Shown: positions 44,727 to 64,000 of the stretch, piece by piece | Numbering within the stretch: the stretch's first letter is position 1 | Layout: the number at the start of each line of letters is the position of its first letter | From: Methylomarinum sp. Ch1-1 | GTDB taxonomy: Bacteria; Pseudomonadota; Gammaproteobacteria; Methylococcales; Methylomonadaceae | DNA: 64,000 nt | NCBI RefSeq assembly: GCF_030717995.2 | Contig: NZ_CP157743.1 | Coordinates: 2,000,001 to 2,064,000 of the forward strand | Reading direction: 5' to 3' | Notes under the pieces: model-generated | What the model was told of the DNA's origin: nothing | Database searches by the model: none | What the model saw: only the letters and a program-made list of their open reading frames with translations | Program-made: the position numbers and the translations under genes

Positions 44727-45112
44727 GGGGGCGACCTGGCTTCGACGCGGGTAGCAAAACCTTAAGTGCATGCCGAGGACAGTACATCTCGTAAAATATA
44801 CTGATATTAAAGTATTCGCAAACGACGAAAACTACTCAGTGGCTTTAGCAGCTTAAAACCTGCACCACTCCTCTGACTACATGTGCTTATGCGTGTAGCG
44901 TTTATCCTTAGGGAGAGACATTCAGGGGGCATCTCACATAAGATCGCGCCACGACTTTGTTCGGAGTCCGAAGCGTTAAAACCAATCGAAATCGCCGCTG
45001 ATTTTCTTGGCCCGTCGGGTAGTCAACGGTTAAATCAAAAGCGCGGGATAAGCATGTAGACCTTATGGCGGAGTGCTTGCGGACGCGGGTTCAATCCCCG
45101 CCGCCTCCACCA
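44727..45112 (+). ncRNA. ssrA: tmRNA (transfer-messenger RNA)
   Basis: 386 bases. The 5' end GGGGGCGACCTGGCTTCGAC pairs with the 3' end CGCCTCC ahead of ACCA, forming the alanyl acceptor stem. The T-arm GGTTCAATCCC is intact and CCA is encoded. The tag frame, with resume codon GCA at 44818, reads ANDENYSVALAA then TAA at 44854-44856. It rescues stalled ribosomes. Its 3' end is a common integration site, and the foreign island starts immediately downstream. Confidence 0.97.
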
Positions 45113-45530: not shown

Positions 45531-45953
45531 TCAGTCGGTAACAAACCCGAACTGACGGCGCTGCTCGGCCCAGTCCTCGGGGAAGGTTTGGGTCAGCTTG
45601 GCCAGCGAGAGTCCGTTGGGCTCCTCGCCGTTGATCAGGGCTTCGACGATGTCCGGGGCCAGGGTCGTCAGCTTGAGGATGCGGGCCACATACGAGCCGT
45701 CGACGTCGAGGGTACGGGCAAGCTCGCTGATGGACTTGATCTGGCCGGATTCGAGGATGTCGGCCCAGGAAAAGGCCCTTGCCAGCGCCTGGAGGATGGC
45801 TGACTGCACCGGCTCCTGCGCCCCGGCTATTTCTCCATCCAGCGCCTGGGGAGCAATAACCGTCTTGCGGCCGCGCATACGCCGGATGAGCATTGGGATG
45901 TGGATCTGCAGGTTGCCGTTGTCGGCCACGGTAATGGTCGGTTTGATTTTCAT
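45531..45953 (-). CDS. Recombinase-associated DNA-binding protein
   Basis: 140 residues. A helix-turn-helix is visible at about 78-105 (SISELARTLDVDGSYVARIL), reminiscent of ParB/KorB-type domains. It overlaps the recombinase stop by four bases. Such small genes often accompany large serine recombinases on integrative elements; the exact role is unknown. Confidence 0.7.
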   Translation of the reverse strand: MKIKPTITVADNGNLQIHIPMLIRRMRGRKTVIAPQALDGEIAGAQEPVQSAILQALARAFSWADILESGQIKSISELARTLDVDGSYVARILKLTTLAPDIVEALINGEEPNGLSLAKLTQTFPEDWAEQRRQFGFVTD

Positions 45954-47113
45954 CGGCTTGCCCTCCGTTCAGTGACTTCGCATGCCAGACCGGCCAGCTC
46001 GGCGATGAGTGTCGTCAGCCCGTTGGTGCGCAGCTCCATGTCGATTCCGGTCTCGCGAATCTCGACTCTGTCTACCAGGAGGCGGATGAGCCGGTTCCTC
46101 TCTATCGGAAAAAGGTCCTCCCAGAAGCCCTCGACATTCTGGAAGGCCTCCGAGACATCCAGCTCCGTGATGCTGTTCCCCTGGTAGGCTTTGCATCGCT
46201 CGCTCACATGCGTCAGTTGTTTCGAGAGCTCGACCGCTTGGCGGTTGACGGTCGTCGGCATCTCGGCCTTGCCCGGCTGATCGTTGCCGGGTTTCATCAG
46301 TTCGATGGCTTGCTCCCGAGCCTGTGACAGTTCCTTTTCGAGTTGGGTTTTCTGTTTGAACAGCCGCTCCCGCTCCGCCTGCTCGATGTCACGGGCCGCG
46401 AAGTAGGTCTTGGCCACCAGCGTCGGCGTGCGAAACACCGCGCTCAACTGCTCGACCACGGCCTGCTCGATGTCCCCGGCGGGAATCCGTTTGAGCGGGC
46501 AGCGGCTCACCGTCCGTTTGCTGTCTTTCTCGCAGATGTAATAGGTGTAGTGGCGACCGTTTTTGCGGGTGTAGGTCGGCCCCATCGAGCATCTGCAGTG
46601 GCCGCAGCGGATGACGCCTTTCAGAGGGGCGACCATTTTGGTTCTGGCCATGGAAATCTTGACCGGTTTGTTGTCTGCCAGGATGGCCTTAACCTTGTCC
46701 CAGGTCACCCGGTCGATGATCCCATCCTGCTCACCGGGGTAACTGCGGTCCTTATGGGCGATCTCGCCGATATAGATCCGGTTGTTCAGCAGCCGGTAAA
46801 TATGGGCGGTATTCCACTCGGAGCCTTCGCGCACCTTGCCTTTCTTGGTGGTCCAGGCCTTGGTGCGGTATCCCTGCTCGTTCAGTTCCTGCCCCAACTT
46901 CTTGGCTGAGCCGATCTGGATGAACCGGCGGAAGATGTACTGCACCGTCTTGGCTTCATCCGGGTTGACCAGCAGTTTCTTGTTTTCTCGGTCGACGTCG
47001 TAACCGAGGATTGGCACACCGCCGCAGTATTTCCCCCGGCGCTTGGCGGCCGCCACCTTGTCCCGGATACGCTCTGCGATGACCTCCCGCTCGTACTCCC
47101 TCGAAGCTGAACA
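45950..47113 (-). pseudogene. Serine recombinase lacking catalytic domain
   Basis: From about 47110 leftward the frame reads EYEREVIAERIRDKVAAAKR, a recombinase domain, then a zinc ribbon (CGHC ... CEKD ... C), a coiled coil and a typical C-terminus. The N-terminal resolvase domain with the catalytic Ser is absent. Upstream codons of the same frame (to 47488) are only the antisense of another gene. The element can therefore no longer excise itself with this protein. Confidence 0.88.
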
Positions 47114-47137
47114 CAAACCCGGAGGACCAGTCCCGAG

Positions 47138-47642
47138 ACCAACCTCCGGCTCTTCGTCTACGGCACCCTGAAACGGGGCTACTGGAACCATCAACGCTTC
47201 TGCGCCCAGGTCCGCAGCATCGAACCAGCCGTGGTCTGGGGCAGGCTCTATCACCTTCATGCCGGGTTCCCGGCCCTGGAAGTGCCGGAAGGGCTGATCC
47301 TGGCCAAGGGGCACCGCCGATCCACTGGCCGACGCCCGCAGGCAGCAAGAGATCGGTACGCCTCGCTTCGGTCGCCCAACCGGCGACTGGGATCTGATCC
47401 ATGGGGAATTGATGACCTTCTCCGACCCGCAGCGCGACCTGCCGCCCATCGACCAGCTGGAAGGCTTCCGGCCCGGCGGCCACAGCATGTACCAGCGGGT
47501 GATGGTGGCGGTAGCCAGGGGCTCAATCGCCTGTGCTGTATGGACTTACACCATGTATGCGCCTCAGAACGGCGAACGTATCACAAACGACAATCAGGCC
47601 GTTTTTTGGAAAAGTCGTCTCTATTCGGCACAAAACGCTTGA
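47138..47642 (+). pseudogene. Gamma-glutamylcyclotransferase-like, frameshifted
   Basis: One frame encodes NLRLFVYGTLKRGYWNHQRF, the hallmark of the GGCT/AIG2 family. It continues to about 47305. The rest of the domain (GELMTFSDPQRDLPPIDQLE, then GFRPGGHSMYQRV) lies in the next frame. A single extra base in the G-run 47308-47311 explains the switch. No start codon is present: the 5' end coincides with the truncation point of the recombinase. Both genes were therefore cut by one rearrangement. Confidence 0.82.
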
Positions 47643-47974: not shown

Positions 47975-52218
<4,244 letters not shown>

Positions 52219-52303: not shown

Positions 52304-55132
52304 ATGAAGATGAAAGAAACCAGTTTGTTCGACTCGCTGCTTGAAGAGCCGCAGAAGCCCTCCGGCCCGGTGACTTGCCTCGGCATGACCTTCGAGAACG
52401 ATGAGGCCCGCCGCGCCCACTTTACCGAGGAGCTGCGCAAGAAGCTGCAGGACCCGGAGTTCCGCAAGATCGAAGGCTTTCCCATCGGCAGCGACGAGGA
52501 CATCCTGAACCTGAGCGATCCGCCGTATTACACCGCCTGCCCGAACCCATGGATTGCCGATTTCATAGCTGAATGGGAGGCGGAGAAGCCGAAACAGCCT
52601 GAAGGCTATCACTATCACCGTGAGCCATTTGCGACCGATGTGAGCGAGGGGAAAAACGACCCCATTTACAACGCGCACTCCTACCACACCAAGGTACCGC
52701 ACAAGGCCATCATGCGTTACATCCTCCATTACACGCAGCCGGGGGATATCGTGTTCGACGGCTTCTGCGGAACCGGTATGACCGGTGTAGCGGCGCAGAT
52801 GTGTGGCGACCGCGAAGTGGTAATGTCGCTCGGCTACCAAGTGAAGCCGGACGGCACCATTTTGCTGGAAGAGGCGGATGAAGATGGCAAAAAGGTTTGG
52901 CGACCGTTTTCAAAACTAGGCGTCCGCAGAGCGATTCTCAATGATCTGTCTCCAGCAGCAACGTTCATCTCGTACAACTACAACACGCCTGTAAATCCAT
53001 CTTCTTTCGAACGCGAAGCCTACCGGATATTGAAAGAAGTCGAAAAAGAATGCGGTTGGATGTATGAAACAAGGCATTCGGATGGACGAATCGGGACAAT
53101 AAATTACACCGTTTGGTCAGATGTTTTTGTCTGTAATGAATGTGCTGGTGAGGTCGTTTTTTGGGACGAAGCCGTCGATGAGCAAAATGGCAAAGTCCAT
53201 GACAGCTTTCCTTGTCCTCACTGTAATGCCGAGTTAACCAAAAGACGTATCGAGCGGGCCTGGGTAAATAAGTACGATGTTGCTATTGGAGAAACGATTA
53301 AACAAGCCAAGCAAGTTCCAGTGCAGATCAATTACTCTGTCGCTGGAGTTTCTGGCCGTTTTGAAAAAAAACCTGACGAAGGTGATCTTGCTTTAATAGC
53401 TAAAATTGAGAATGAGGACATTCCATACTGGCATCCATCTTTACGCATGATCGAGGGACGCGAAACGCGAAGAAATGATCCCATCGGCATTACGCATGTT
53501 CATCACTTTTACACAAAGCGTAATTTGCGCGTGCTCGCAACACTCCGGCACATCCTTTCGACCTCAGAGATGGAAAGCCAGTTGCTTTGCCTCGTGGGTG
53601 ACCAACTCCCAAGAGCAAGCAAAATGCACAAAATCGCTGTCAGCCGCCTTAATACTAATCTCTCCAAAACAGCAGGCGTTCTTGCGGGAACTTTGTATAT
53701 ACCGTCCAACCAAATTGAGTACTGCCTGATCGCGATGATCGGATTCAGAATCAAAGACGTTTCCTCGTATTTGAGCAAAAGAGACGGTAAAACCAAGCAG
53801 ATTGTTTTTACGTCATCATCAGAGAAGATGCTGATGCCAGACAATTCTATGGACTATTTTTTCTTCGATCCACCATTTGGGGCAAACATCAACTATTCTG
53901 AGCTTAATTCACTCTGGGAGGTTTGGTTAAAGGTATTAACAAACAATAAGCCTGAGGCTGTGGAAAATAGCTCCCAAGGTAAAAGTTTGAATGAGTATCG
54001 CCAGTTGATGGCGGCTTGTTTTGAGGAGGCATATCGATTACTTAAGCCGGGTCGCTGGCTTACTGTTGAATTTTCTAATACCAATGCATCCGTATGGAAC
54101 AGCATCCAAACCGCTCTGACTGAAGTTGGTTTCATTGTAGCGAATGTCTCGGCTCTAGATAAAAAACAAGGCAGCTTTAAGGCAGTAACCACACCTACAG
54201 CAGTCAAGCAAGACCTTGTCATCTCAGCATACAAACCCAATGGCGGTTTTGAAGAGCGCTTCCAGAAAGAGGCACAAACCGAAGAAGGCGTGTGGGATTT
54301 TGTCCGAACCCACCTAAAGTATCTGCCAGTCACCAAGCGCCAAGGGCCACTAATGCTTTTTGTCCCCGAGCGCGACCCTCGCATCCTGTTCGACCAGATG
54401 ATCGCATTCTATGTCCGCAAGGGTTACCCGGTGCCGATCTCCAGCCAGGAGTTCCAGGTCGGACTATCGCAGCGTTTCATTGAGCGTGACGGCATGTATT
54501 TCCTGCCGGACCAGGTGGCCGAATACGACCGCAAGAAGATGACCTCCGGTGCCCCACAGCAGCTTTCGATGTTCGTCTCCGACGAAGCATCCGCCATCCA
54601 GTGGCTCCGCCAGCTCATCAAGGAAAAGCCGCAGACCTTCTCCGACATCAATCCGCAGTTCATGCAGCAGCTCGGCGGCTGGAGCAAGAACGAGGCCCAG
54701 CTGGATCTGCGCGAACTGCTGAACCAGAACTTCCTCTGCTACGACGGAAAAGGCCCTGTGCCCGAGCAAATACATGCCTACCTCTCCACCAACTGGAAAG
54801 ATCTGCGTAACCTGCCGAAGGATGCCCCGGCGCTGGTGACCAAAGCACGCGACCGCTGGTACGTGCCCGACCCCAACAAGGCAGGCGACCTGGAGAAACT
54901 GCGCGAGAAGGCGTTGCTCAAGGAGTTCGAGGAGTACAAACACGTCAAGAAGAAGCTCAAGGTCTTCCGCCTGGAAGCTGTCCGCGCCGGATTCAAGAAA
55001 GCCTGGCAGGAGCGCGACTACGCAGTCATCGTCGCCGTGGCCGACAAGATCTCCAACAACGTCCTGGAAGAAGATCCAAAACTGCTCATGTGGTTTGATC
55101 AAGCAGTTACAAGGCTAGGGACGAGTGGTTAG
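52304..55132 (+). CDS. pglX: PglX-type adenine methyltransferase of BREX
   Basis: 942 residues, DUF1156-like N6-adenine DNA methylase that marks host DNA. S-adenosylmethionine motif DGFCGTGMTG at about 151-160, a zinc ribbon (CNEC ... CPHC) at about 278-307, and catalytic DPPF near 523. The middle (about 52850-54300) is A+T-richer than both ends: one counted line at 53881 is 38 % G+C against 65 % at 52381 and 63 % at 54661. This suggests replaced specificity or methylase segments. The last codons and TAG lie within a repeat arm. Confidence 0.92.
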   Translation: MKMKETSLFDSLLEEPQKPSGPVTCLGMTFENDEARRAHFTEELRKKLQDPEFRKIEGFPIGSDEDILNLSDPPYYTACPNPWIADFIAEWEAEKPKQPEGYHYHREPFATDVSEGKNDPIYNAHSYHTKVPHKAIMRYILHYTQPGDIVFDGFCGTGMTGVAAQMCGDREVVMSLGYQVKPDGTILLEEADEDGKKVWRPFSKLGVRRAILNDLSPAATFISYNYNTPVNPSSFEREAYRILKEVEKECGWMYETRHSDGRIGTINYTVWSDVFVCNECAGEVVFWDEAVDEQNGKVHDSFPCPHCNAELTKRRIERAWVNKYDVAIGETIKQAKQVPVQINYSVAGVSGRFEKKPDEGDLALIAKIENEDIPYWHPSLRMIEGRETRRNDPIGITHVHHFYTKRNLRVLATLRHILSTSEMESQLLCLVGDQLPRASKMHKIAVSRLNTNLSKTAGVLAGTLYIPSNQIEYCLIAMIGFRIKDVSSYLSKRDGKTKQIVFTSSSEKMLMPDNSMDYFFFDPPFGANINYSELNSLWEVWLKVLTNNKPEAVENSSQGKSLNEYRQLMAACFEEAYRLLKPGRWLTVEFSNTNASVWNSIQTALTEVGFIVANVSALDKKQGSFKAVTTPTAVKQDLVISAYKPNGGFEERFQKEAQTEEGVWDFVRTHLKYLPVTKRQGPLMLFVPERDPRILFDQMIAFYVRKGYPVPISSQEFQVGLSQRFIERDGMYFLPDQVAEYDRKKMTSGAPQQLSMFVSDEASAIQWLRQLIKEKPQTFSDINPQFMQQLGGWSKNEAQLDLRELLNQNFLCYDGKGPVPEQIHAYLSTNWKDLRNLPKDAPALVTKARDRWYVPDPNKAGDLEKLREKALLKEFEEYKHVKKKLKVFRLEAVRAGFKKAWQERDYAVIVAVADKISNNVLEEDPKLLMWFDQAVTRLGTSG

Positions 55133-55193
55133 TGGCGAGGGGCGAGAAAGGAAAAGCAGGGGCGAGTGGCTAGTGGCGAGGGGCGAGAAAGGA
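55124..55193. repeat. Left arms of the cassette repeat, two copies
   Basis: Two nearly identical 30-base units at 55123-55152 and 55164-55193 (one mismatch), 41 bases apart, built on GGCGAGGGGCGAG. The first contains the stop codon of pglX. A third copy lies in opposite orientation at 58000-58023 within brxH. Together they bracket the inserted four-gene cassette. Confidence 0.85.
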
Positions 55194-55199
55194 GTGAGC

Positions 55200-55586
55200 A
55201 TGCAGGTAAAAAGTTATAAAGATCTGATCGTATGGCAAAAGTCGATGGATTTAGTGGCAATGGTGTACCAGGTGACCAAGACGTTTCCGAAGGAAGAGCT
55301 TTATGGACTGACGAATCAGCTTCGGCGAGCCGCCGTTTCCATTCCATCCAACATTGCTGAGGGACAAGCCAGAAATTCAACCGCTGAATTCAGGAATTTT
55401 CTTTCCATAGCTCGTGGCTCGCTGGCTGAAGTCGAAACCCAGTTGCTTATTGCCGAGCGGTTGAAATATATCGACTCTAAAAAACTGGATGAGATTCTGA
55501 ATATCCAGGGTGAAATCAACAAAATGACGAACGCACTGATGAACAAACTCGCCCCTCACCACTTTGACCGGAGGGGAATGAAATGA
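55200..55586 (+). CDS. Four-helix-bundle (S23/Avd-like) protein
   Basis: 128 residues, TIGR02436-type four-helix bundle. Typical sequence: KSYKDLIVWQKSMDLVAMVY, then LTNQLRRAAVSIPSNIAEGQ and FLSIARGSLAEVETQL. Such genes occur inside 23S rRNA intervening sequences, near diversity-generating retroelements and beside short repeats. ATG 55200 follows AAGGAG; longer frames run through the repeat. First gene of the cassette, ATGA-coupled to the next. Confidence 0.88.
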   Translation: MQVKSYKDLIVWQKSMDLVAMVYQVTKTFPKEELYGLTNQLRRAAVSIPSNIAEGQARNSTAEFRNFLSIARGSLAEVETQLLIAERLKYIDSKKLDEILNIQGEINKMTNALMNKLAPHHFDRRGMK

Positions 55587-55879
55587 GCGGTGGACATTTT
55601 GACTACAAAGAAAACTATTTGGGATACATCGCTGAGCAACTCGAACAGGATATCGAGTTCAACGATGTCGAGTATGACAGCTCCAAACCGATAGATACGC
55701 CTTACGGATTTCAGCATCAGCCTGAGACAATGGAATACCTGAAAATTATGGTTGATGAGCTGTACAGACTCCAAGAACTGCTCCATGAGTACGATTACGC
55801 CGTCTCCGGCGATAGTTCGAAAGAGCAGTTTCTTGAAAAGGCGAGATCGGTTTATAGAAGAAAGGTGGGAGGCGAGTAA
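55583..55879 (+). CDS. Small protein of unknown function
   Basis: 98 residues, acidic and rich in Tyr, Glu and Asp, starting MSGGHFDYKENYLGYIAEQL. No known catalytic motif; two amphipathic helices are likely. I recognise no assigned function. It is coupled to both neighbours (ATGA before, TAATG after), so it is probably made in step with the ATPase and may be its regulator or partner. Confidence 0.75.
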   Translation: MSGGHFDYKENYLGYIAEQLEQDIEFNDVEYDSSKPIDTPYGFQHQPETMEYLKIMVDELYRLQELLHEYDYAVSGDSSKEQFLEKARSVYRRKVGGE

Positions 55880-57180
55880 TGGCAAAAATAGAAGGTTTTC
55901 GAATAAAGAACTTTAGGGCGTTAAAAGATGTCACACTTGGTCGCCTCTGGAATCAGCAGCAGGCCGAGCCTCTCACACCCATGACGGCGGTTATTGGCAA
56001 GAACGGTGTTGGCAAGAGCACGCTGTTTGACGCCTTCGGGTTTCTTGCGGATGCTTTGAAGTCTGGTGTAGAAGAGGCGTGCGACTCTCGCGGCAGGGGA
56101 GGATTTGAGCGAATCCGGGCGCAAGGTCAAAAAGGGCCAATCGAATTCGAGGTCTATTACAAGGAAGATGGGAATGCCCGCCCCATCACCTACGAAATTT
56201 CCATTGATGTCGATAGTTCAGGTCGTCCGTATGTCTTGAAAGAACGTCTCCGGCAGAGGCGCAAGGGCCAGAAGCACGGATGGCCCTTCTCGTTTCTTGT
56301 GTTGAACAGTGGAAAAGGTGTTGTTTGGAAAGGCGATCAAGAAGGCCGTCAGATCGATGAAGAACAGGGTGAGTTTGACCTGCTTGGTTTGATGGAGTCC
56401 ATTAAATCAGGTGAGGCGAAAGAAGAGTCTAAAGAATCTAAAGAAACCGATGTTGTCGAGCTTGACGACATGCGCAAGCTTGGGATTGCCACGCTGGGTT
56501 CGTTGAAACAACATCCGAGGATTTCCGCGTTCCGCAAATTTATCGAAGGGTGGTACCTCAGCTATTTCACTCCAGACGCAGCGAGGAGCCTGCCGCTCGC
56601 CGGTCCTCAGAAGCATCTCAACATCCATGGCGACAATCTCGGAAACGTTGTGCAATTCATGGAGCGGGAACATCCAAAGCGTTTCCAGGCTATTTTGAAC
56701 CGGATTGCGGAAAAAATTCCCGGCATCAACAAGATTGATACAGAAAAGACAAACGATGGCCGCTTGCTGCTGCGGTTCAATGACAAAGGTTTTCAAGATC
56801 CTTTTTATTCGCAACAAATGTCCGATGGCACATTGAAAGTGTTCGCGTACCTCCTGTTGCTCGAAGACCCGACACCACCGCCGTTTTTATGTATCGAAGA
56901 GCCGGAAAATGGCTTGTACCATAAACTTCTCGAATCCTTGGCAAAGGAATTCCGTGAGCATGCGACAGGCCGCAAGGGTGGATCTCAGATTTTCATTACG
57001 ACCCATCAGCCCTATCTGGTTGATGCCTTGGAACCTGCCGAGGTCTGGATTCTGGAAAAGGGATCGGATGGCTATTCAGTAATCCGCAGAGCGAGCGATG
57101 ATGCCATCGTCAAGAACATGGTGGCCGAAGGTTTACCGCTGGGTGGCCTTTGGTACAGCGATTATCTGGACGCGAGGTGA
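55879..57180 (+). CDS. AAA15/OLD-type ATPase of inserted cassette
   Basis: 433 residues, ABC-like ATPase fold. Walker A VIGKNGVGKSTLFDAF at about 38-52, signature-like QMSDGTLKVFAYLLLL near 313-328, Walker B FLCIEEPENGLYH near 333-345, and switch His in FITTHQPYLVD near 374. A charged insert (SGEAKEESKESKETD) lies near 175. This class pairs with TOPRIM nucleases in phage defence (OLD, Gabija, PARIS). Partner gene starts four bases downstream. Confidence 0.88.
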   Translation: MAKIEGFRIKNFRALKDVTLGRLWNQQQAEPLTPMTAVIGKNGVGKSTLFDAFGFLADALKSGVEEACDSRGRGGFERIRAQGQKGPIEFEVYYKEDGNARPITYEISIDVDSSGRPYVLKERLRQRRKGQKHGWPFSFLVLNSGKGVVWKGDQEGRQIDEEQGEFDLLGLMESIKSGEAKEESKESKETDVVELDDMRKLGIATLGSLKQHPRISAFRKFIEGWYLSYFTPDAARSLPLAGPQKHLNIHGDNLGNVVQFMEREHPKRFQAILNRIAEKIPGINKIDTEKTNDGRLLLRFNDKGFQDPFYSQQMSDGTLKVFAYLLLLEDPTPPPFLCIEEPENGLYHKLLESLAKEFREHATGRKGGSQIFITTHQPYLVDALEPAEVWILEKGSDGYSVIRRASDDAIVKNMVAEGLPLGGLWYSDYLDAR

Positions 57181-57184
57181 TCGG

Positions 57185-57847
57185 ATGCATTTTGAGATCC
57201 TCGTTGAAGACCAGTCCGGCAAGAAAGCGCTCGATATCCTTGTCCCGAAAATCATCGGTGATGACCATACGTTCAATGTTCATCCCTATAAAGGCATAGG
57301 CCGCATTCCGAAGAATCTCGGCAACAAGGCAGATGCAAGCAAACGCATCCTGCTCGATCAGCTCCCAAAGCTTCTCCGTGGATACGGTAACACTTTCGCC
57401 AATTATCCAGCTGATTATCCGGCGGCTGTAATCCTTGTCTGCGATCTTGATAACAAGTGCCTGAAAGCGTTTCGCCAAGAGCTTTTCAATATCCTGAATG
57501 CTTGCAATTCCCAGCCAGATACCCGGTTTTGCATTGCCATTGAAGAAGGTGAGGCTTGGTTTCTTGGCGACATCCCAGCGGTCAAATCTGCCTATCCAAA
57601 AGCCAAAGACGCTGTCCTGAATACATACGTAAATGATTCCATTTGCGGCACTTGGGAGCGCTTGGCAGAGGCAGTCTATAGCGGAGGCTTTGCCGCACTT
57701 TCAGCAAAAGGTTGGCAGGCTGTCGGTGCCGAGAAATCGCAGTGGGCTGAAAAGATTAGCCCGCACATGGATGTAACAAACAACGCTTCCCCAAGTTTTG
57801 CTTATTTCCGCCAAAAGTTGCTTGAACTCGCTGGAGCCCCGGCCTGA
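57185..57847 (+). CDS. TOPRIM-like partner of the ATPase
   Basis: 220 residues. The N-terminus FEILVEDQSGKKAL supplies the TOPRIM-type Glu, and AVILVCDLDNKCLKAF supplies the D-x-D pair; IAIEEGEAWFLGD follows. This matches small TOPRIM-fold proteins of the DUF4276/DUF4435 sort encoded beside AAA15 ATPases. Likely nuclease or RNase acting when the ATPase senses infection. ATG 57185 is chosen over a start inside the ATPase gene. Its TGA overlaps the brxH start by one base. Confidence 0.75.
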   Translation: MHFEILVEDQSGKKALDILVPKIIGDDHTFNVHPYKGIGRIPKNLGNKADASKRILLDQLPKLLRGYGNTFANYPADYPAAVILVCDLDNKCLKAFRQELFNILNACNSQPDTRFCIAIEEGEAWFLGDIPAVKSAYPKAKDAVLNTYVNDSICGTWERLAEAVYSGGFAALSAKGWQAVGAEKSQWAEKISPHMDVTNNASPSFAYFRQKLLELAGAPA

Positions 57848-60741
57848 TGGAATCCCCTTGGCAATACAGCACCGTTCATAACAGCGCCTGCAAGGTCATC
57901 GAGGAACAGACTTTGTGGGGGCAGACGGTGTGCCGTGTCTGGTTGCCGAATTCTGATTCTGTTGTACGAATCCCGGCTTCCGGTCTGATTCCACTCGCCT
58001 CTCGCCCCTCGTCACTAACCACTGATCATATTGCCTATGTGGCCGCCGCAGCCAAGGTGGCCGAGGTGCTCGAAGGCTCCACCAGCGCTACCGACGGCCA
58101 TGTGCTGCTGGCTCCCATGGAGTCCAACGTCATTCCGCTGCCGCACCAGATCCACGCCTTGTTCCGGGCCACCTCCGGCGACCGCGTGCGCTACCTACTG
58201 GCCGACGAGGTGGGTCTCGGCAAGACCATCGAGGCCGGGCTGGTCATGCGCGAACTCAAGTTGCGCGGGCTGGTGCGCCGAACTCTGGTTGTCTCTCCCA
58301 AAGGTATTGCCACCCAGTGGGTGGCGGAAATGCAGACCCACTTCAATGAACAGTTCCAGCTTGTGCTGGGCGACGATATCAGCACTTTGCAGCGGCTGGC
58401 ACCCGAAGCGGACCACCGGAACTCCGCCTGGTCGATGTTCGATCAGGTCATCGTCTCCCTGGATTCGGTCAAACCCATGGACAAGCGGCGCGGCTGGACC
58501 GCCGAGCGCGTCGCCGAATACAACCGCAGCCGGTTCGAGGATCTGATTACCGCCGGTTGGGATCTGGTGATCGTGGACGAAGCGCATCGGCTGGGCGGCA
58601 GCACCGATCAGGTCGCCCGCTACAAACTCGGCAAGGGGCTGGCGGAAGCCGCACCCTATGTGCTGCTGCTTTCGGCCACGCCTCACCAGGGCAAGACCGA
58701 TGCCTTTCATCGTTTGATGAGCCTGCTGGATGACGACGCCTTTCCGGATATGGAGAGCGTCTCCCGCGAGCGGGTGGCTCCTTATGTCATCCGCACCGAG
58801 AAGCGCAAGGCCATCGATGCCGACGGCAAGCCGCTCTTTAAACCCCGGCGCACGCAGATGGCCCCGGTGGCCTGGGAAAGCCGACACCACTTGCAGCAGC
58901 TCCTCTATGAGGCAGTAACCGACTATGTGCGCGAGGGCTACAACCAGGCCCTGCGCGAGAAGAAGCGCCACATCGGCTTTCTGATGATTTTGATGCAGCG
59001 CCTGGTGGTCTCCAGCACCCGGGCGATCCGCACCACGCTGGAACGGCGACTCGTGGCGCTCAAGGATGGCGAGCAACAAGCCAGCCTGCGCCTGGTGGAA
59101 CTTGAAAATGGCGCGGAGGGATCGGAAAGCCCAGACGATGAAATAGCCGAGCTGTACGACATGGACGGCCAGGATTTGCTCGATGAGCTGCTGAAATCCC
59201 ACGTGTCGGCTCTGCAGAGCGAAGGCAGCCATGTGGAGACCTTGCTTGACGCGGCGGTCCGTTGTGAGCAGGCGGGTCCGGATGCCAAGGCCGAGGCGCT
59301 GATCGAGTGGATCTACAAGCTGCAAGCCGAGGAAAACGAACCGGATCTGAAGGTGCTGATCTTCACCGAGTTCGTGCCGACCCAGCAGATGCTGAAGGAG
59401 TTTCTGGAAGCCCGGGGAATCTCGGTGGTCACCCTGAACGGCTCCATGGCCATGGAGGAACGTGGGGCAGCCCAGGATGCCTTCCGCAAATCGCACCGCG
59501 TATTGGTCTCCACCGATGCGGGCGGTGAGGGTCTGAACCTGCAGTTCGCCCACGTCATCATCAACTACGACATCCCTTGGAACCCGATGCGGCTGGAGCA
59601 ACGTATCGGTCGCGTGGACCGTATCGGCCAGCCAAAAACCGTACAGGCGATCAATTTCGTATTTGAGGATTCAGTCGAGTTCCGGGTCCGCGAAGTTCTG
59701 GAGCAGAAGCTCTCGGTGATCTTCGACGAGTTCGGCATCGACAAGACCGGCGACGTGCTCGACTCGGCCCAGGCCGGTGAGTTGTTCGAGGATGTGTTCG
59801 CCTCGGCCATCCTTAATCCTGACGGCATCGAAACCTCCGTCGATCACACGGTGGCCAGGATTCGGGATGAGATCCAGCAGGTGCGCGAGGCCTCCGCCAT
59901 CTATGGCATCTCCGAAGAGCCGGATGTGCAAACCGCTGAGCGTCTGCGCTCGCATCCGCTGCCCCACTGGGTGGAACGGATGACGGTCGGTTACCTCAAC
60001 TCCCATGGCGGTATGGCCAGTCGCAAGCGCTCCTGGTGGGATCTGAATTGGCCTGACGGTCAGGAACACCGCAAAGCCGTATTCAGCGCCCGAGAAGCGA
60101 ATCGCTTGACCGACGCAACTCTGCTCAACCTTGAAAATAGCCGTGTCCGTGGTCTTGCCCTGAACCTGCCCCAGGTCGCGGCAGGTCAGCCATTGCCTTG
60201 CGTAACCGTGAGCGGACTGCCAGCGAGCATCTCCGGGCTCTGGGGGCTCTTTGAGATCCGCCTTCGGGCCGGAATGCACCAGAAGACACAACTCCTGCGC
60301 ATCCCCATGGTGCGGCGTGGCTATGTCAGCGTGTTTTTGAGCGAGGAAGGCAAACTGTTTCTGCCCACGGCCCGGCATATCTGGGATGCGTTGCAGACAG
60401 CGGAAGCCGAGGTGCAATCCACCCTCGGGCAGGATGAATCTATCACCGCCCATGAGCGTTTGCAGATTGCTGCCGAACAGGCCGGACAGGAGCTGTTCGA
60501 CGCCCTGCAGCAAGCGCACCTCGCTTCGGTGAACAGGGAAGAGGAACGCGGCATGGTCGCCTTCACCTCACGGCGCAAGGCCATCGAACGGGTGGGGCTG
60601 CCCGAAGTGCGCCAGTACCGTCTGGCCCGCTGCGCTGCCGAGGAAAATGAGTGGCGGCATGAACTGCAATCAGCGCGGCAGATCGTACCGGAAATCCGGT
60701 CGCTGCTGATGCTGCGGATCATCAAGGGAGGCGCTCAATGA
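57847..60741 (+). CDS. brxH: BrxH-type SNF2 helicase of BREX
   Basis: 964 residues. Helicase motifs: LADEVGLGKTIEAGLV at about 117-132, VIVDEAHRLGG at about 241-251, LLLSATPHQGKT, C-terminal VLIFTEFVPTQ near 505 and QRIGRVDRIGQ near 583. Position between pglX and pglZ fits BrxHII of type 3 BREX. Residues about 52-59 (ASRPSSLT) are encoded by the right arm of the cassette repeat, so the N-terminus appears remodelled by the insertion. Confidence 0.9.
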   Translation: MESPWQYSTVHNSACKVIEEQTLWGQTVCRVWLPNSDSVVRIPASGLIPLASRPSSLTTDHIAYVAAAAKVAEVLEGSTSATDGHVLLAPMESNVIPLPHQIHALFRATSGDRVRYLLADEVGLGKTIEAGLVMRELKLRGLVRRTLVVSPKGIATQWVAEMQTHFNEQFQLVLGDDISTLQRLAPEADHRNSAWSMFDQVIVSLDSVKPMDKRRGWTAERVAEYNRSRFEDLITAGWDLVIVDEAHRLGGSTDQVARYKLGKGLAEAAPYVLLLSATPHQGKTDAFHRLMSLLDDDAFPDMESVSRERVAPYVIRTEKRKAIDADGKPLFKPRRTQMAPVAWESRHHLQQLLYEAVTDYVREGYNQALREKKRHIGFLMILMQRLVVSSTRAIRTTLERRLVALKDGEQQASLRLVELENGAEGSESPDDEIAELYDMDGQDLLDELLKSHVSALQSEGSHVETLLDAAVRCEQAGPDAKAEALIEWIYKLQAEENEPDLKVLIFTEFVPTQQMLKEFLEARGISVVTLNGSMAMEERGAAQDAFRKSHRVLVSTDAGGEGLNLQFAHVIINYDIPWNPMRLEQRIGRVDRIGQPKTVQAINFVFEDSVEFRVREVLEQKLSVIFDEFGIDKTGDVLDSAQAGELFEDVFASAILNPDGIETSVDHTVARIRDEIQQVREASAIYGISEEPDVQTAERLRSHPLPHWVERMTVGYLNSHGGMASRKRSWWDLNWPDGQEHRKAVFSAREANRLTDATLLNLENSRVRGLALNLPQVAAGQPLPCVTVSGLPASISGLWGLFEIRLRAGMHQKTQLLRIPMVRRGYVSVFLSEEGKLFLPTARHIWDALQTAEAEVQSTLGQDESITAHERLQIAAEQAGQELFDALQQAHLASVNREEERGMVAFTSRRKAIERVGLPEVRQYRLARCAAEENEWRHELQSARQIVPEIRSLLMLRIIKGGAQ
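58000..58023. repeat. Right arm of the cassette repeat, in brxH
   Basis: Inverse of the left arm at 55124-55147 with one mismatch in 24 bases. It lies inside the 5' part of brxH without breaking its frame. Distance between outer edges of the arms is 2.9 kb, enclosing four genes. Confidence 0.85.
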
Positions 60742-62732
60742 GTAGTTGGCGAGACGCCATCCTGAACGACTTTGTGCCCAACGTCAGCAAGCTGACCCTG
60801 GTCGCGGACCCGGATTGTCTGCTGACCGAGGAGAAGCTGGCATTGGAGCTTCGCGGGCGCGGGTTCGACCTGATCGAGTTCAGTGATCCGGTCGAATTCA
60901 GATACGCCTATGAGTCAAAGTACCGTTCGATCTGGGACCGGGGTGAGCACACCGATCTGGTGGTAGTCCTCCGCTTGCAGGATGCGGAGCTTGAATCCCT
61001 GCCATACGACCTGCTCCAAGCAGGCCGCAAGCTTTCATTCAATCTGGGGGATCTGTTCCCAACGCTTAGCTATCCGGTGATCGAGAAGCTCGACCGAAGC
61101 CTGCTGGACGCACTTTTTGAGGCTCAACGCAAGTCGCCGCCGGATCGCATGGGCGATAACGCCACCAAGGATTTCATCCTCCGCCATGTGTTCGGCATCG
61201 CCGCTGAGCTGATTGCCAGCGAGGTGGAACTGCTTCGCGCCTTGCTTCGCCTGCACTATGGGAAGCTACAGATCCCGCAGATGCTGGCTGAGCGGCTTAT
61301 CCAGGTTCTCAAAGGGCATGATGGATTCAAGGCTTGGCCGCTCTCTGAAATCGTTCCGGACGATGAGGCCTTTTTCGCCTTTTTGCAGGAACGCTGGCCG
61401 CTATTTCTTTCCAGGCTCGGCAGCGCTCATCAGTTACGGGAGGATTCGCCGGAATACGGTCTCAAGTATCCCGGCCCTGATCGCCTGTCGTTCGACCATC
61501 AGGACATCAAGGTCTACATCGACAACCTGTTCCTGGAGGGGAAACTCACCCCTGTCGAGGCCAAAGGCATTGAAGTGGATGCCGGGTCCTGGGTTCGAAG
61601 CGGCATCGCCACGTCCGGCGTGGACGATGACGAGCTGCGGATCTCTCGCTTGTTTGGCCTTGTCGAGAAGGAACTGCCCACTGCGGAAGCGCGTTACTCG
61701 GACTGGACCGCCTTTGCATTGAAATGGGCCGAACTTTCTTCGCTGGTTCATTGTGGCAACAGCACCGAGTATCAGACCCGGCTCAGGGAAATCGGCGATG
61801 CACTGAACACGATCTTTGCCGCTTGGCTGGCCGACCACTACTCCAGTCTGATCAACTTGCCGCCGACCAATCCGGCCATGCTCCACCATGTGCCGCGCCG
61901 CCTGGCTCGGGATATCGAGGACTCCGGTAGCAGCCGTGCGGCGTTGATTGTGGTTGACGGCCTGGCCTTGGATCAGTGGGTAACCATTCGCCAGCTTCTG
62001 CAAAAGCAGGACGCCAATCTGGTCATGCGCGAATCCGCGACCTTCGCCTGGATTCCGACGCTGACCTCGGTATCGCGGCAATCGATCTTCTCGGGCAAGC
62101 CGCCGCTCTATTTCCCGTCATCCATCAACTCGACCAACAGCGAAGAGAAACTCTGGAAGCAGTTCTGGGAAGGCCATGGTCTGTCCCGGCTGGATGTCGC
62201 TTACCAGCGAGGTCTTGGCGACGGCGATGCTGCGGGCGTCCTCGACTCCGCAATCCACCCCGGGAAGACCAAGGTGGTGGGGTTGGTCGTGGACAAGGTG
62301 GACAAGATCATGCACGGCATGCAACTCGGCTCGGCCGGGATGCACAACCAGATCAAGCAGTGGTGCCATGCAGGATTTCTTTCCGCGATGGTCGGCCAAC
62401 TGCTGGATTACGGCTATGAGGTCTGGCTGACGGCCGATCACGGCAACATCCAATGCGAAGGCAAAGGCCGCCCGTCTGAAGGTGTGATTGCCGAAACTCG
62501 CGGCGAGCGGGTTCGTGTCTATCCCACGCCGGAACTCCGCGCTCAGGTGGCCGGGGCCTTCCCGTTTGCCCACGAATGGCAGCCGGTCGGTTTGCCCGCA
62601 GATTATTTCCCCCTGGTGGCCGGTGGCCGCGACGCATTCGTGAACCCGGGAGATGCCATCGTAGGTCACGGCGGTGTAGCCATCGAAGAAGTCATTGTGC
62701 CCCTTGTGAAGTTTGAAAGGAGGACACGGTGA
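60738..62732 (+). CDS. pglZ: PglZ, alkaline-phosphatase-superfamily BREX protein
   Basis: 664 residues. Helical N-terminal half, then the PglZ domain at about 395-660: AALIVVDGLALDQW, VGLVVDKVDKIMHGM, VWLTADHGNIQCEG and VGHGGVAIEEVIVPLV. PglZ is the common core protein of all BREX types. ATGA overlap with brxH and one-base overlap with the ATG of brxA. Confidence 0.93.
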   Translation: MSSWRDAILNDFVPNVSKLTLVADPDCLLTEEKLALELRGRGFDLIEFSDPVEFRYAYESKYRSIWDRGEHTDLVVVLRLQDAELESLPYDLLQAGRKLSFNLGDLFPTLSYPVIEKLDRSLLDALFEAQRKSPPDRMGDNATKDFILRHVFGIAAELIASEVELLRALLRLHYGKLQIPQMLAERLIQVLKGHDGFKAWPLSEIVPDDEAFFAFLQERWPLFLSRLGSAHQLREDSPEYGLKYPGPDRLSFDHQDIKVYIDNLFLEGKLTPVEAKGIEVDAGSWVRSGIATSGVDDDELRISRLFGLVEKELPTAEARYSDWTAFALKWAELSSLVHCGNSTEYQTRLREIGDALNTIFAAWLADHYSSLINLPPTNPAMLHHVPRRLARDIEDSGSSRAALIVVDGLALDQWVTIRQLLQKQDANLVMRESATFAWIPTLTSVSRQSIFSGKPPLYFPSSINSTNSEEKLWKQFWEGHGLSRLDVAYQRGLGDGDAAGVLDSAIHPGKTKVVGLVVDKVDKIMHGMQLGSAGMHNQIKQWCHAGFLSAMVGQLLDYGYEVWLTADHGNIQCEGKGRPSEGVIAETRGERVRVYPTPELRAQVAGAFPFAHEWQPVGLPADYFPLVAGGRDAFVNPGDAIVGHGGVAIEEVIVPLVKFERRTR

Positions 62733-63484
62733 TGGGCAAAAGACACGAAGCCATCGGTATCAAACAGGCGATCCGTTTCGAGTGGATGCAGAAAGCAGCC
62801 AATCTGCTGCTGGCGGGACTCGACGCCAAAACCATCCGTCAAGAGCTGCACGAATTTCTCGCGGACAGGAAAGGCAACGGCTCCGAAGGCGAACGAAGCG
62901 ACCAGACCCGAACCTTTGTCGTTGATAACCTGGTGAAAACTTGGGTATCTCCGGACCCGGTACTGGTTCCTTTCCGGGATGCGGCACTGGCGTTTTTGCG
63001 TAAGCACCCTTCGATGGGTCTTGCGGTTCATTGGGGGATGATCTCGGCGGTCTATCCTTTTTGGTTCAATGTGGCCCGGCAGACCGGTCGTCTGCTGGCT
63101 CTGCAGGACCAGGTCACCCACACGCAGATCGTTAACCGGCTCAAGGAACAATATGGCGACCGACAGACTGTCAGCCGCTGTGCACAATATGTTATCCGCT
63201 CATTTGTCGCCTGGGGAGCCTTGAAGGATTCCGAAGCCAAGGGCTGCTATGAGAAAGTCGCTCCGGTGAGCATTGCTGATTCGGATTTGGCCATCCTGAT
63301 GTTCGAATCCGCACTCCTGGCCACCCCAGAGGCCAAGGGCGCATTGGGGCTGCTCCTGAACAATCCGGCTTTCTTCCCATTCCAGCTCCCCGTGATGACC
63401 GGAGACTTTGTATCCCAACGCAGCGAGCGGATCGACGTGGTTCGCTATGGACTGGACGATGAGCTGTTGAAACTGAAGGCATAG
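62732..63484 (+). CDS. brxA: BrxA, small BREX protein (DUF1819-like)
   Basis: 250 residues, all-helical, resembling the DUF1819/BrxA family (RQELHEFLADRKGN, then AVHWGMISAVYPFWFNVA and VIRSFVAWGALKD). BrxA closes type 3 operons, as here. ATG 62732 is eight bases after AAAGGAGG; GTG 62729 would be five bases after it and is an alternative. The 60 bases that follow separate it from a SIR2-domain gene. Confidence 0.85.
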   Translation: MGKRHEAIGIKQAIRFEWMQKAANLLLAGLDAKTIRQELHEFLADRKGNGSEGERSDQTRTFVVDNLVKTWVSPDPVLVPFRDAALAFLRKHPSMGLAVHWGMISAVYPFWFNVARQTGRLLALQDQVTHTQIVNRLKEQYGDRQTVSRCAQYVIRSFVAWGALKDSEAKGCYEKVAPVSIADSDLAILMFESALLATPEAKGALGLLLNNPAFFPFQLPVMTGDFVSQRSERIDVVRYGLDDELLKLKA

Positions 63485-63544: not shown

Positions 63545-64000
63545 ATGAGCGCATCTGACAATCTTGAAGCAATATGGACTGCTCCATTTGGTGACGCTCT
63601 GGATGCCCTGGACGCGCTTATGGCACAGCATGGGAGAGTGTTCCTGATCGGTGCGGGTTGCAGCAAATGCGCAGGCCTACCGTTGATGGAAGAACTTACT
63701 GCTAAGGTACTGGGTAGCGGTGTGCTGGACGCTGACACCACAGATATTCTCAAGGGAATTCAGGTCAGCTTCGCTGGCGCGAGTGGTCCAAATATTGAGG
63801 ACTACCTTAGTGAAATTATCGACCTTCTGGCCATTGCTGAGAGAAGGTCTGAACGAGGCGCAACTGATAACCAGGTCTTTATCAAAGACAAGCAATATTC
63901 TGGACAGCAGCTGAGGGAATCTGCAGAAAAAATAAAGCGCACTATCTCTGACATCATTGAGTGTAGCGACAAGAAAATTGATGTGGCGGTTCATCGAGAA
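63545..64000 (+). CDS. SIR2-domain protein, N-terminal part
   Basis: Open from ATG 63545 to the window edge (152 residues seen). GAGGAGG lies seven bases before the start. VFLIGAGCSKCAGLPLMEEL is the NAD-binding start of the SIR2-like fold found in defence NADases. The rest is helical and charged. It probably extends far beyond the window and may carry a second domain. Position right after brxA suggests an extra abortive-type defence gene. Confidence 0.75.
   Translation, partial: MSASDNLEAIWTAPFGDALDALDALMAQHGRVFLIGAGCSKCAGLPLMEELTAKVLGSGVLDADTTDILKGIQVSFAGASGPNIEDYLSEIIDLLAIAERRSERGATDNQVFIKDKQYSGQQLRESAEKIKRTISDIIECSDKKIDVAVHRE

What the first reader, a model, noticed from the sequence alone, without database searches (positions are those of the whole stretch)
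55123..58025. ATPase-TOPRIM cassette inserted in a BREX operon, bracketed by inverted repeats
Type 3 BREX normally has pglX directly followed by brxH. Here four coupled genes (S23-like bundle, 98-residue orphan, AAA15 ATPase, TOPRIM-like protein) separate them. Repeat arms matching in 23 of 24 bases lie in opposite orientation at 55124-55147 and 58000-58023. One gives pglX its stop codon; the other is read in frame within brxH. Every junction keeps translational coupling. This looks like a mobile defence cassette that lands in operons, and the four-gene combination may be an undescribed system.
Basis: partly seen in the sequence, partly recalled or inferred. Interest (0 to 1): 0.92.

Follow-up and report, generated by a model that had tools for sequence, protein, structure and literature searches.

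The report
BREX cargo slot with S23 hitchhiker
In this BREX phage-defence operon, a place between two genes that in other species holds nothing or other genes, often defence genes, carries a predicted ATPase-nuclease defence pair, and the inverted repeats nearby most likely come from a separate, probably mobile, small S23 element of a widespread and little-noticed kind.

Summary
The repeats and genes are real, but most likely not one mobile four-gene cassette. (1) The pglX-brxH junction of type 3 BREX is a cargo slot: of 26 operons compared (window included), 11 have 25-117 nt there and 15 have 472-7262 nt with varied cargo, including Gabija twice, HEC-01 twice, HEC-02 and IetS. One draft contig holds two cassettes in tandem, joined by a brxH head fused to a pglX tail. 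(2) Here the cargo is HEC-01A/B, a pair already modelled in PADLOC, plus a small helical protein. In 27 other HEC-01A loci neither S23 nor the 98-residue gene was found within 1.5 kb; three of the closest relatives (82-85%) and one at 67% follow a decayed pglX tail. (3) The repeats are arrays of 7-base units; the left ones belong to a ~450-bp S23 (23S-intervening-sequence-like) element in the pglX 3' end. The brxH array also occurs in an operon without S23, ORF98 or HEC-01. (4) This is general: 45 of 64 S23 loci are bracketed by inverted arrays (4% of mismatched pairs), 73 of 128 flanks show a 7-nt period (control 4 of 2000), with locus-specific words. Seven paper searches found no description of this outside rRNA. 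How arrays arise is unknown; wobble pairs show no sign of selected RNA pairing.

The parts
47975..48490 (+). brxF of the type 3 BREX operon
   Evidence: PADLOC BrxF E 3.8e-67
48487..52218 (+). brxC
   Evidence: PADLOC BrxC E 0; Pfam DUF6079
52304..55132 (+). pglX; its last codons and stop come from the left repeat array
   Evidence: PADLOC PglXI E 0; native tails in the nearest relatives end in MGGE or similar
55117..55196 (+). left array of about 7-nt units (two 36-nt copies, 94%), first arm of the S23 element
   Evidence: lag-7 self-match 0.58, next best lag of 2-13 0.40
55200..55586 (+). S23 / 23S-intervening-sequence four-helix-bundle gene (Avd relative); GTG 55125 is an alternative start
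   Evidence: Pfam PF05635 E 2.7e-43; PDB 2gsc E 2.3e-30; PHROG Avd E 3.8e-12
55548..55563 (-). right arm of the S23 element, overlapping the 3' end of its gene
   Evidence: 15 of 16 complementary to 55131-55146 and to 55172-55187; pairs with the left array in the predicted fold
55570..55581 (+). GGAGGGGAATGA: probable displaced native pglX tail, now the likely ORF98 ribosome site
   Evidence: identical to the pglX tail of L020 and near-identical to L037 tails; inference
55583..55879 (+). ORF98, small protein predicted to have three helices (MSGGHFDY family), function unknown
   Evidence: 98 database matches; model pLDDT 79.6; 46% relative before brxH in L021; distant relatives on viral contigs
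55879..57180 (+). HEC-01A: AAA_21/AAA_15 (OLD/ABC-like) ATPase
   Evidence: Pfam AAA_21 E 9.8e-54; PADLOC HEC-01A E 5.9e-201
57185..57847 (+). HEC-01B: DUF4276, TOPRIM-like predicted nuclease
   Evidence: Pfam DUF4276 E 5.3e-8; PADLOC HEC-01B E 4.3e-101; E8, D87, D89 invariant in the 16 aligned sequences
57847..60741 (+). brxH
   Evidence: PADLOC BrxH E 0
57949..58028 (+). segment of brxH that differs from its 96%-identical relative while both sides match; contains the array
   Evidence: read by eye; 25 of 48 nt alike at nt 103-150 against 96 of 102 before it
57992..58023 (-). solo 7-nt array read in frame as the BrxH linker LASRPSSLTT
   Evidence: 23/24 to the left array; lag-7 self-match 0.72, reached by 3 of 2863 brxH windows, itself included; same kind of linker in 15 of the 120 BrxH proteins listed
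60738..62732 (+). pglZ
   Evidence: NCBIfam BREX_PglZ_3 E 2.2e-278
62729..63484 (+). brxA
   Evidence: PADLOC BrxA E 1.2e-120

Best explanation
The pglX-brxH junction of this type 3 BREX operon is a cargo slot, now holding an ATPase-TOPRIM pair (HEC-01) that is predicted to act as a backup phage-defence module, while the inverted repeats are 7-nt arrays that most likely belong to a separate, probably mobile S23 element rather than to the ends of a four-gene transposon. Slot: cargo differs between operons whose flanks are nearly the same (shown); it is probably swapped by homologous recombination in the conserved pglX 3' end and brxH 5' end (inferred from the tandem cassette in L037). Pair: the OLD-like ATPase probably senses a phage trigger or BREX inhibition and releases the TOPRIM nuclease (inferred from PARIS, Gabija and OLD relatives). 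S23 element: about 450 bp, left array + S23 gene + right arm, probably inserted in the last codons of pglX in sense orientation, leaving the native tail as the ORF98 ribosome site (inferred from the L020 tail). The brxH array is a solo array of the same word, carried by a brxH allele that also exists with other cargo; how it got there is not known.
For: Slot: 11 of 26 operons with 25-117 nt, 15 with 472-7262 nt (one further locus, L026, had no pglX; only window, L014 and L037 share more than 1 kb at 90% or more). Cargo: GajA/GajB in L020 and L021, HEC-02A/B in L019, IetS in L023, AriA/OLD-like in L037, HEC-01A/B in L022 (79%/57%), Schlafen-type proteins in L022, L028, L037 and PIN in L018. Swap: L014 has BrxH 96% identical but other cargo; L037 brxH start is 96.3% and pglX end 90.4% identical to the window with other cargo; L037 has two cassettes joined by a brxH head (about 58 codons) fused to a pglX tail, and at nt 103-150 the first brxH head matches L014 in 44 of 48 but its own second head in 23 of 48. 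Orphan HEC-01: L146, L148, L149 (82-85% HEC-01A) and L150 (67%) have a decayed pglX tail 3-7 nt before the ATPase start; control fractions 0.0005, 0.0005, 0.0003, 0.0027 of 4000 windows; no brxC, brxH, pglZ or brxA match in the 8-17 kb read. S23 element: 45 of 64 loci with flank inverted-repeat score >=16 against 4.0% of 4032 mismatched pairs; one locus per cluster of alike flanks, 29 of 38; 16 of 17 further loci from plasmids and viral contigs (mismatched 12.5% of 272); lag-7 arrays in 73 of 128 flanks, 46 of 64 loci, 49 of 76 flanks and 30 of 38 loci after clustering, control 4 of 2000; element present at cysD-cysN in G000 and G249 and absent in six relatives.
Against: Six other HEC-01A relatives of 62-73% identity (L151-L156) show no pglX tail, so the BREX mark is not general. 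No brxH-head scar follows HEC-01B in the four loci with a tail, so movement as a complete pglX-tail/cargo/brxH-head unit is shown only in L037, a draft contig whose brxH also lacks an internal part. The pglX tails at orphan loci may mark decayed BREX operons rather than moved cassettes; L322 ends 190 bp after HEC-01B, so its downstream side was not seen. The brxH array matches the left array better (23/24) than the S23 element's own right arm does (15/16), which fits a larger bracket. Immediate-flank inverted-repeat score for the window's own S23 gene is only 11, as its right arm lies inside the gene. Defence by HEC-01 is untested here.
Confidence: 0.74

Rival explanations
1. The four genes are one mobile compound element: the S23 element has captured ORF98 and HEC-01, and the outer arrays (pglX end and brxH codon 51) are its working ends.
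For: Best arm match spans the whole set (23/24); the outer arms could pair strongly as RNA (-51.9 kcal/mol, shuffled minimum -39.1); arrays of this word occur nowhere else in the genome.
Against: L037 has the brxH array but none of this cargo and no left array, and other BrxH proteins have its linker; brxH codons 1-50 would have to lie inside the element; HEC-01 and ORF98 occur apart from S23; ordinary S23 elements are 391-893 nt, median 485.
Confidence: 0.12
2. The arrays work as RNA: like 23S intervening sequences they form a stem in the operon transcript that RNase III cuts, tuning expression of pglX, cargo and brxH.
For: Coxiella IVS has terminal inverted repeats forming a 28-bp stem, heptameric repeats before the S23 start, and is cut by RNase III (PMC4990558, passages); S23 elements lie in sense with the nearest long upstream ORF in 28 of 36 cases; the stem forms in the predicted fold; left array and S23-end arm pair at -36.3 kcal/mol, shuffled minimum -33.7.
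Against: Mismatches between arms show no bias to sense-strand G-U pairs (91 sense against 90 antisense, 59 loci); the element folds no better than shuffles (z -0.08).
Confidence: 0.3
3. The slot is ordinary operon growth: genes were added one at a time by illegitimate recombination and no exchange through pglX/brxH homology takes place.
For: Cargo sizes and families are very diverse; several operons with cargo are distant relatives; the L037 join lies in a short stretch alike in both genes, which an illegitimate event could also make.
Against: Near-identical flanks with unrelated cargo (window, L014, L037) and the tandem cassette in L037 whose two brxH heads are of different kinds.
Confidence: 0.15
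4. The left arrays were copied from the native brxH linker by an inverted duplication, and resemble S23 arrays by chance.
For: The linker reads as a plausible BrxH sequence and is shared by 15 of the 120 BrxH proteins listed.
Against: S23 genes in general carry such arrays with other words; the commoner BrxH linker (SADLQPEIEAG, 64 of those counted) is of another sequence; a solo array hairpin also sits in frame in pglX of L015.
Confidence: 0.08

Closest known systems
HEC-01 (PADLOC-DB candidate; I recall the name as Hma-embedded candidate, Payne et al. 2021, not read here)
   Same: Both proteins match nearly full length: HEC-01A E 5.9e-201, HEC-01B E 4.3e-101; partner gene found beside it in 22 of 28 loci
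   Different: Lies in a BREX slot with an S23 element and ORF98 in front of it
Auxiliary/backup effectors embedded in BREX loci, including OLD-ABC plus TOPRIM (Rakesh and Krishnan 2026, PMC12839542; abstract, section 35 first of two parts, and passages seen)
   Same: OLD-like ATPase + TOPRIM nuclease inside a core operon; Schlafen and PIN effectors also as they report
   Different: [quoted passage not shown] the pglX-brxH slot comparison, the tandem cassette and pglX scars at orphan copies come from this work (the rest of that paper was not read)
23S rRNA intervening sequence (IVS) with S23 ORF, e.g. Coxiella (PMC4990558; abstract and passages seen)
   Same: S23 ORF, about 430-450 nt, terminal inverted repeats, heptameric repeats before the start codon
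   Different: Sits in the 3' end of a protein gene in an operon, not in rRNA; excision not tested
TAACTGA heptamer repeats of Beggiatoaceae (PMC4679880; passages seen)
   Same: Sets of a 7-base repeat between genes, some overlapping ORF ends; carriage by a mobile element is considered there
   Different: One word through a genome, nearly all direct repeats; the text has no mention of S23 or 23S rRNA; here the word is locus-specific, inverted, and tied to S23 genes
PARIS (AriA/AriB)
   Same: OLD/AAA15-type ATPase followed by a TOPRIM protein, in or near BREX
   Different: ATPase matches AriA far less well (2.8e-50 against 5.9e-201) and the second protein has no AriB match but is DUF4276/HEC-01B
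Avd of diversity-generating retroelements
   Same: Same fold family (PHROG Avd E 3.8e-12; NCBIfam Avd E 8.3e-7)
   Different: No reverse transcriptase family matched in the BREX and cargo genes scanned; score below the Avd cut-off (29.3 against 80 bits)

Membership tests
Type 3 BREX operon | brxF, brxC, pglX(I), brxH, pglZ, brxA in order on one strand | tested here: met
   (BREX_PglZ_3 E 2.2e-278)
HEC-01 | ATPase and DUF4276-type partner matching the two models, adjacent | tested here: met
HEC-01 | anti-phage activity | not testable with these tools
   needs plaque assays
PARIS | AriB (DUF4435-type, recalled) partner | tested here: not met
   No AriB match among the 10 families listed for the second protein
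23S intervening sequence element | S23 ORF | tested here: met
   PF05635 E 2.7e-43
23S intervening sequence element | terminal inverted repeats around the ORF | tested here: met
   15 of 16 at 55131-55146/55548-55563; general in 45 of 64 loci
23S intervening sequence element | insertion in 23S rRNA | tested here: not met
   Lies at the end of pglX; Rfam at gathering scores finds only tmRNA in 40000-64000
23S intervening sequence element | excision by RNase III | not testable with these tools
   no RNA data
Transposon bracketed by the two 24-nt arms | arms occur only together, at both ends of the cargo | tested here: not met
   brxH arm alone in L037; further copies inside
Transposon bracketed by the two 24-nt arms | further copies of the unit elsewhere | tested here: not met
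   no other arm copy in own genome; four genes together in 0 of 27 other HEC-01A loci and 0 of 26 other BREX loci; metagenomes not searched

The most novel reading that the evidence does not exclude
S23/Avd-type genes are the core of a widespread family of roughly 0.5-kb mobile elements that land at the 3' ends of operon genes (BREX, CRISPR-Cas, restriction, cysDN, conjugation) and write their own ends: inverted arrays of a 7-base word that is different from element to element, kept alike on both sides, and renewed faster than the gene. Because S23 is a relative of Avd, the partner of a reverse transcriptase, and because Avd-like genes in one genome (G325), at least one of them followed by a full reverse transcriptase match, stand near perfect TTAACGA arrays, the arrays may be written by an RNA-templated or similar short-repeat synthesis that nobody has described.
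Probability: 0.25. Interest if true: 0.88.

Novelty: new variant of a known kind. Interest (0 to 1): 0.66.

Why it matters
It points to an exchangeable cargo slot in type 3 BREX operons, so these operons can be read as carriers that trade backup defences, and some orphan copies of one such defence still carry a piece of pglX as a mark of origin. It also explains a repeat that looks like a transposon end: S23 genes, known from rRNA intervening sequences, sit inside ordinary operons (in the window's class, in cyanobacteria and in one Gemmatimonadota plasmid among those sampled) between inverted arrays of locus-specific 7-base words. That makes the old question of what S23 does, and how intervening sequences spread, open to test, and it warns that S23 genes listed as linked to CRISPR or BREX may simply have landed there.

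Tried and rejected
Four-gene transposon: rejected as the main reading (L037).

Arrays as a genome-wide dispersed repeat: rejected, 3 copies in the genome, all here.

Selected RNA stem: G-U strand test gave 91 against 90 and the element folds like its shuffles; kept only as a rival.

brxH-head scar after orphan HEC-01B: looked for in four loci, not found.

Predicted structure of HEC-01B was poor (mean pLDDT 49.9) and not used. ORF98 model is three helices (pLDDT 79.6), no function deduced. No solved relative for HEC-01A or HEC-01B by sequence.

ORF98 in phage and plasmid records: 0 phage records, 1 plasmid record with a partial match; in 369 class genomes only the window's own. brxH array word in viral contigs: 0.

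Dropped or unused rows. BREX: of the 80 loci kept (from a capped list) I used L020-L039 only; the other 60 match BrxH at 28-34% over part of its length. S23: 12 of 76 loci were left out of the flank test for no tblastn match or short flank (L006, L105, L108, L115, L135, L190, L196, L197, L198, L202, L203, L206); weak or partial hits (L110-L113, L116, L117) and rows that I did not fetch were not tested. The 64 are not independent: they fall into 38 clusters by alike flanks, and the result holds on one locus per cluster. Of 30 plasmid records with an S23 match I fetched 12, from the upper half of the list, before looking at repeats; of the 5 viral loci L304-L306 have the same arms. In one search rows below score 16 or with the same left arm were dropped, leaving 59 loci. 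For cysD-cysN I gave 8 of the 60 relatives; G370 had no match. In one search, L147 (window) was left out and L165 had no start match, leaving 26 of 28 loci. Not scanned for families: the slot ORFs of L024, the first ORF of L034, the 345-aa ORF of L023 and the two short ORFs of L018.

I mended this and took the confidence from 0.75 to 0.74.

Papers: ten searches used. For S23 with repeats outside rRNA they were, in an open-licence PubMed Central library only; subscription papers are not covered. A paper on heptameric quadruplex repeats in Xanthomonas and Nostoc (PMC4692102) was seen in the listing only.
Full report
WHAT IS THERE. The window (G000:C2:2000001-2064000, a 4.77-Mb genome in 3 contigs) holds a type 3 BREX operon brxF-brxC-pglX-[insert]-brxH-pglZ-brxA. 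The insert has four genes: an S23/23S-intervening-sequence four-helix-bundle gene (PF05635 E 2.7e-43), a 98-residue protein, an AAA_21/AAA_15 ATPase and a DUF4276 protein. The last two match the PADLOC models HEC-01A (E 5.9e-201) and HEC-01B (E 4.3e-101) over nearly their full length. In HEC-01B, E8 and the D87-x-D89 pair, which fit a TOPRIM centre (motif recalled), are invariant in the 16 sequences aligned.

THE REPEATS. The word occurs nowhere else in the genome with up to 3 mismatches. The left and brxH stretches have a 7-nt period (self-match 0.58 and 0.69 at lag 7; next best lags of 2-13 are 0.40 and 0.46); the short S23-end arm shows no clear period.

S23 GENES GENERALLY CARRY SUCH ARRAYS. 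I compared the 300 bp before and after S23 genes from the window's class and family. In 45 of 64 loci the two flanks form an inverted repeat of score 16 or more, against 4.0% of 4032 pairs made from different loci (12 of 76 loci could not be used). In 73 of 128 flanks the best 42-nt window repeats at lag 7 (3 at other lags; 0 at lag 7 after shuffling), in 46 of 64 loci; the same test on 2000 random windows of BREX and HEC-01 loci gave 4 at lag 7, two of them the S23 element of L019, and 27 at other lags. With one locus per cluster of alike flanks the figures are 29 of 38 loci for the inverted repeat, and 49 of 76 flanks and 30 of 38 loci for lag 7. In 17 further loci from plasmids (12: eleven cyanobacterial and one of Gemmatimonadota) and viral contigs (5, three with the same arms), 16 pass the inverted-repeat score (mismatched pairs 12.5% of 272). 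The word differs from locus to locus, apart from related loci, but is shared by both sides. The 45 elements have median length 485 nt (IQR 451-556); the nearest long upstream ORF is in the same sense in 28 of 36, and in 20 of those 28 it ends within 30 nt of the left arm (ORFs were called mechanically, and an array can itself supply the stop). Annotated plasmid contexts include cas6-S23-cas4, twice, and cas10-S23-cmr3.

THEY BEHAVE LIKE INSERTIONS. In this genome a second S23 element lies between cysD and cysN (gene names by eye); G249 has one at the same place, while G369, G371, G372, G373, G374 and G376 have 26-45 nt there (G370 gave no match). The two S23 genes are clearly related (78% over 178 nt) but their arrays have different words and do not align: arrays change faster than the gene yet stay matched. 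A third S23 element lies at the end of an hsdS gene (name by eye). A type 3 BREX operon of the same order (L019) has another S23 element with arrays between brxC and pglX. In L015 a solo array hairpin without S23 sits in frame in pglX.

THE WINDOW'S S23 ELEMENT. It begins in the last codons of pglX and ends near 55563-55567; behind it stands GGAGGGGAATGA, identical to the pglX tail of L020 and close to those of L037. The simplest reading is an insertion into the last codons of pglX; this is inference, since that stretch is also an ordinary ribosome site. Size and anatomy resemble the Coxiella IVS (428 nt, 28-bp terminal stem, heptameric repeats before the S23 start, RNase III excision; PMC4990558, abstract and passages).

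THE brxH ARRAY IS SEPARATE. Against the 96%-identical BrxH of L014, about 80 bp near the brxH start (57949-58028) differ strongly (nt 103-150: 25 of 48 alike, nt 1-102: 96 of 102). Desulfobulbus sp. Tol-SR (L037) has the window's version, 96.3% identical over 454 nt, with the array (1 mismatch to the left arm) but no S23, ORF98 or HEC-01 (its ATPase matches HEC-01A only weakly) and no left array. A linker of this kind occurs in 15 of the 120 BrxH proteins listed (5693 matched), one of them (P0231) with the commoner sequence just before it. So the brxH array is an allele in its own right.

THE SLOT. Of 27 loci, 26 show both genes: 11 have 25-117 nt between pglX and brxH, 15 have 472-7262 nt (20 of the 27 come from the best end of a capped list). 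Cargo: Gabija (L020, L021), HEC-01 (window, L022), HEC-02 (L019), IetS (L023), AriA/OLD-like (L037), kinase like PD-T4-6 (L031), partial PDC-M36A match (L039), Schlafen-type (L022, L028, L037) and PIN (L018), DUF488 and DuOB proteins (L034). Proteins of L014 and L015 (alike by eye) have no match in PADLOC, nor L014 in Pfam; two further proteins of L031 and the Schlafen-type ones of L022 and L028 had none in PADLOC. An ORF98 relative (46%) stands before brxH in L021. L037 holds two cassettes in tandem, separated by a brxH head of about 58 codons fused to a pglX tail, the join lying in a short stretch alike in both genes. The first head matches L014 in 44 of 48 nt at 103-150 and L037's own second head in 23 of 48, so the two cassettes probably have different histories. 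This is the most direct sign that pglX tail-cargo-brxH head moves as a unit.

HEC-01 OUTSIDE BREX. In 369 genomes of the class, 25 have HEC-01A (28 loci). HEC-01B was found beside it in 22 of 28; S23 or ORF98 within up to 1.5 kb only in the window. Three of the closest relatives, L146, L148 and L149 (82-85%), and L150 (67%) have a decayed pglX tail 3-7 nt before the ATPase start (scores 22, 20, 22.5, 14; control 99.9th percentile 15.0). No brxC, brxH, pglZ or brxA match was found in the 8-17 kb read around them (L322 ends soon after HEC-01B, and L323 has one short pglX-like match 5.5 kb on). The other 22 loci scored lower, except L167 at 14.5, a distant relative that may be chance; six of them (L151-L156) are 62-73% identical, so the pglX mark is not general. 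No brxH head follows HEC-01B in the four.

HOW IT MOST LIKELY WORKS. HEC-01 is probably a backup effector: an OLD-like ATPase gating a TOPRIM nuclease, as argued for such pairs in BREX loci (PMC12839542, abstract, section 35 part 1 and passages). This is inference. The S23 element is probably a tolerated passenger. Whether its arms act in RNA is open: mismatches between arms show no sense-strand G-U bias (91 against 90) and the element folds no better than shuffles, though the outer arms could pair strongly (-51.9 kcal/mol).

A LEAD. In G325 an Avd-like gene gives 10 full-length rows. Six copies lie in the stretches fetched, near-identical (99% or more) over 1.2-1.5 kb. RVT_1 passes its cut-off twice in that genome, once just behind one of these copies; shorter frames follow others. 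Perfect TTAACGA arrays and a large protein gene stand next to them. One genome proves little, but it puts 7-base arrays next to Avd and reverse transcriptase genes.

NOVELTY. Embedded OLD/TOPRIM cargo in BREX is known; the HEC-01 pair is a known candidate; IVS elements in rRNA are known; heptamer repeats between genes are known in Beggiatoaceae (PMC4679880, passages). Not found in my searches: the rule that S23 genes in protein operons are bracketed by inverted arrays of locus-specific 7-base words. The FLSHclust paper names 23S rRNA IVP in a figure legend among its CRISPR-related clusters (PMC10910872, passage); the cas-operon cases here suggest some such links may be passengers.

Noticed in passing
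window 44727-45112 and 45950-47488: A tmRNA gene followed by a large serine recombinase ORF (Recombinase and zinc-ribbon domains; no resolvase domain matched) just upstream of the BREX operon: possibly the edge of an integrated island.
   Followed up: no
L208-L210 (G325): A 1.5-Mb genome with ten full-length Avd-like gene hits, six near-identical in the stretches fetched, with reverse-transcriptase matches (RVT_1 in two places), beside perfect tandem TTAACGA arrays and very large protein genes.
   Followed up: partly
L006 1400-1920: S23 element at the 3' end of an hsdS gene (name by eye): the gene-tail sequence MQELLTG(K/R)TRL occurs on both sides of the element, and a further array hairpin without S23 lies about 600 nt upstream.
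   Followed up: partly
L037 8989-10644 and P0219-P0227: A short BrxH (547-551 aa) lacking the part that matches about residues 238-646; nine listed database proteins have 547 aa, so it may be a real allele rather than an assembly fault.
   Followed up: no
L015 2821-2890: In-frame solo 7-nt array hairpin within pglX, without S23 gene.
   Followed up: partly
L314 (Gemmatirosa plasmid): S23 gene flanked by inverted arrays with an 8-nt instead of 7-nt period.
   Followed up: no
L309, L311, L313: S23 genes inserted in CRISPR-Cas operons (cas6-S23-cas4 twice, cas10-S23-cmr3) on cyanobacterial plasmids.
   Followed up: partly
window 43668-44135 and 63545-64000: A circularly permuted YpsA (SLOG) gene upstream of the tmRNA, and an ORF without Pfam match running off the window after brxA.
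   Followed up: no
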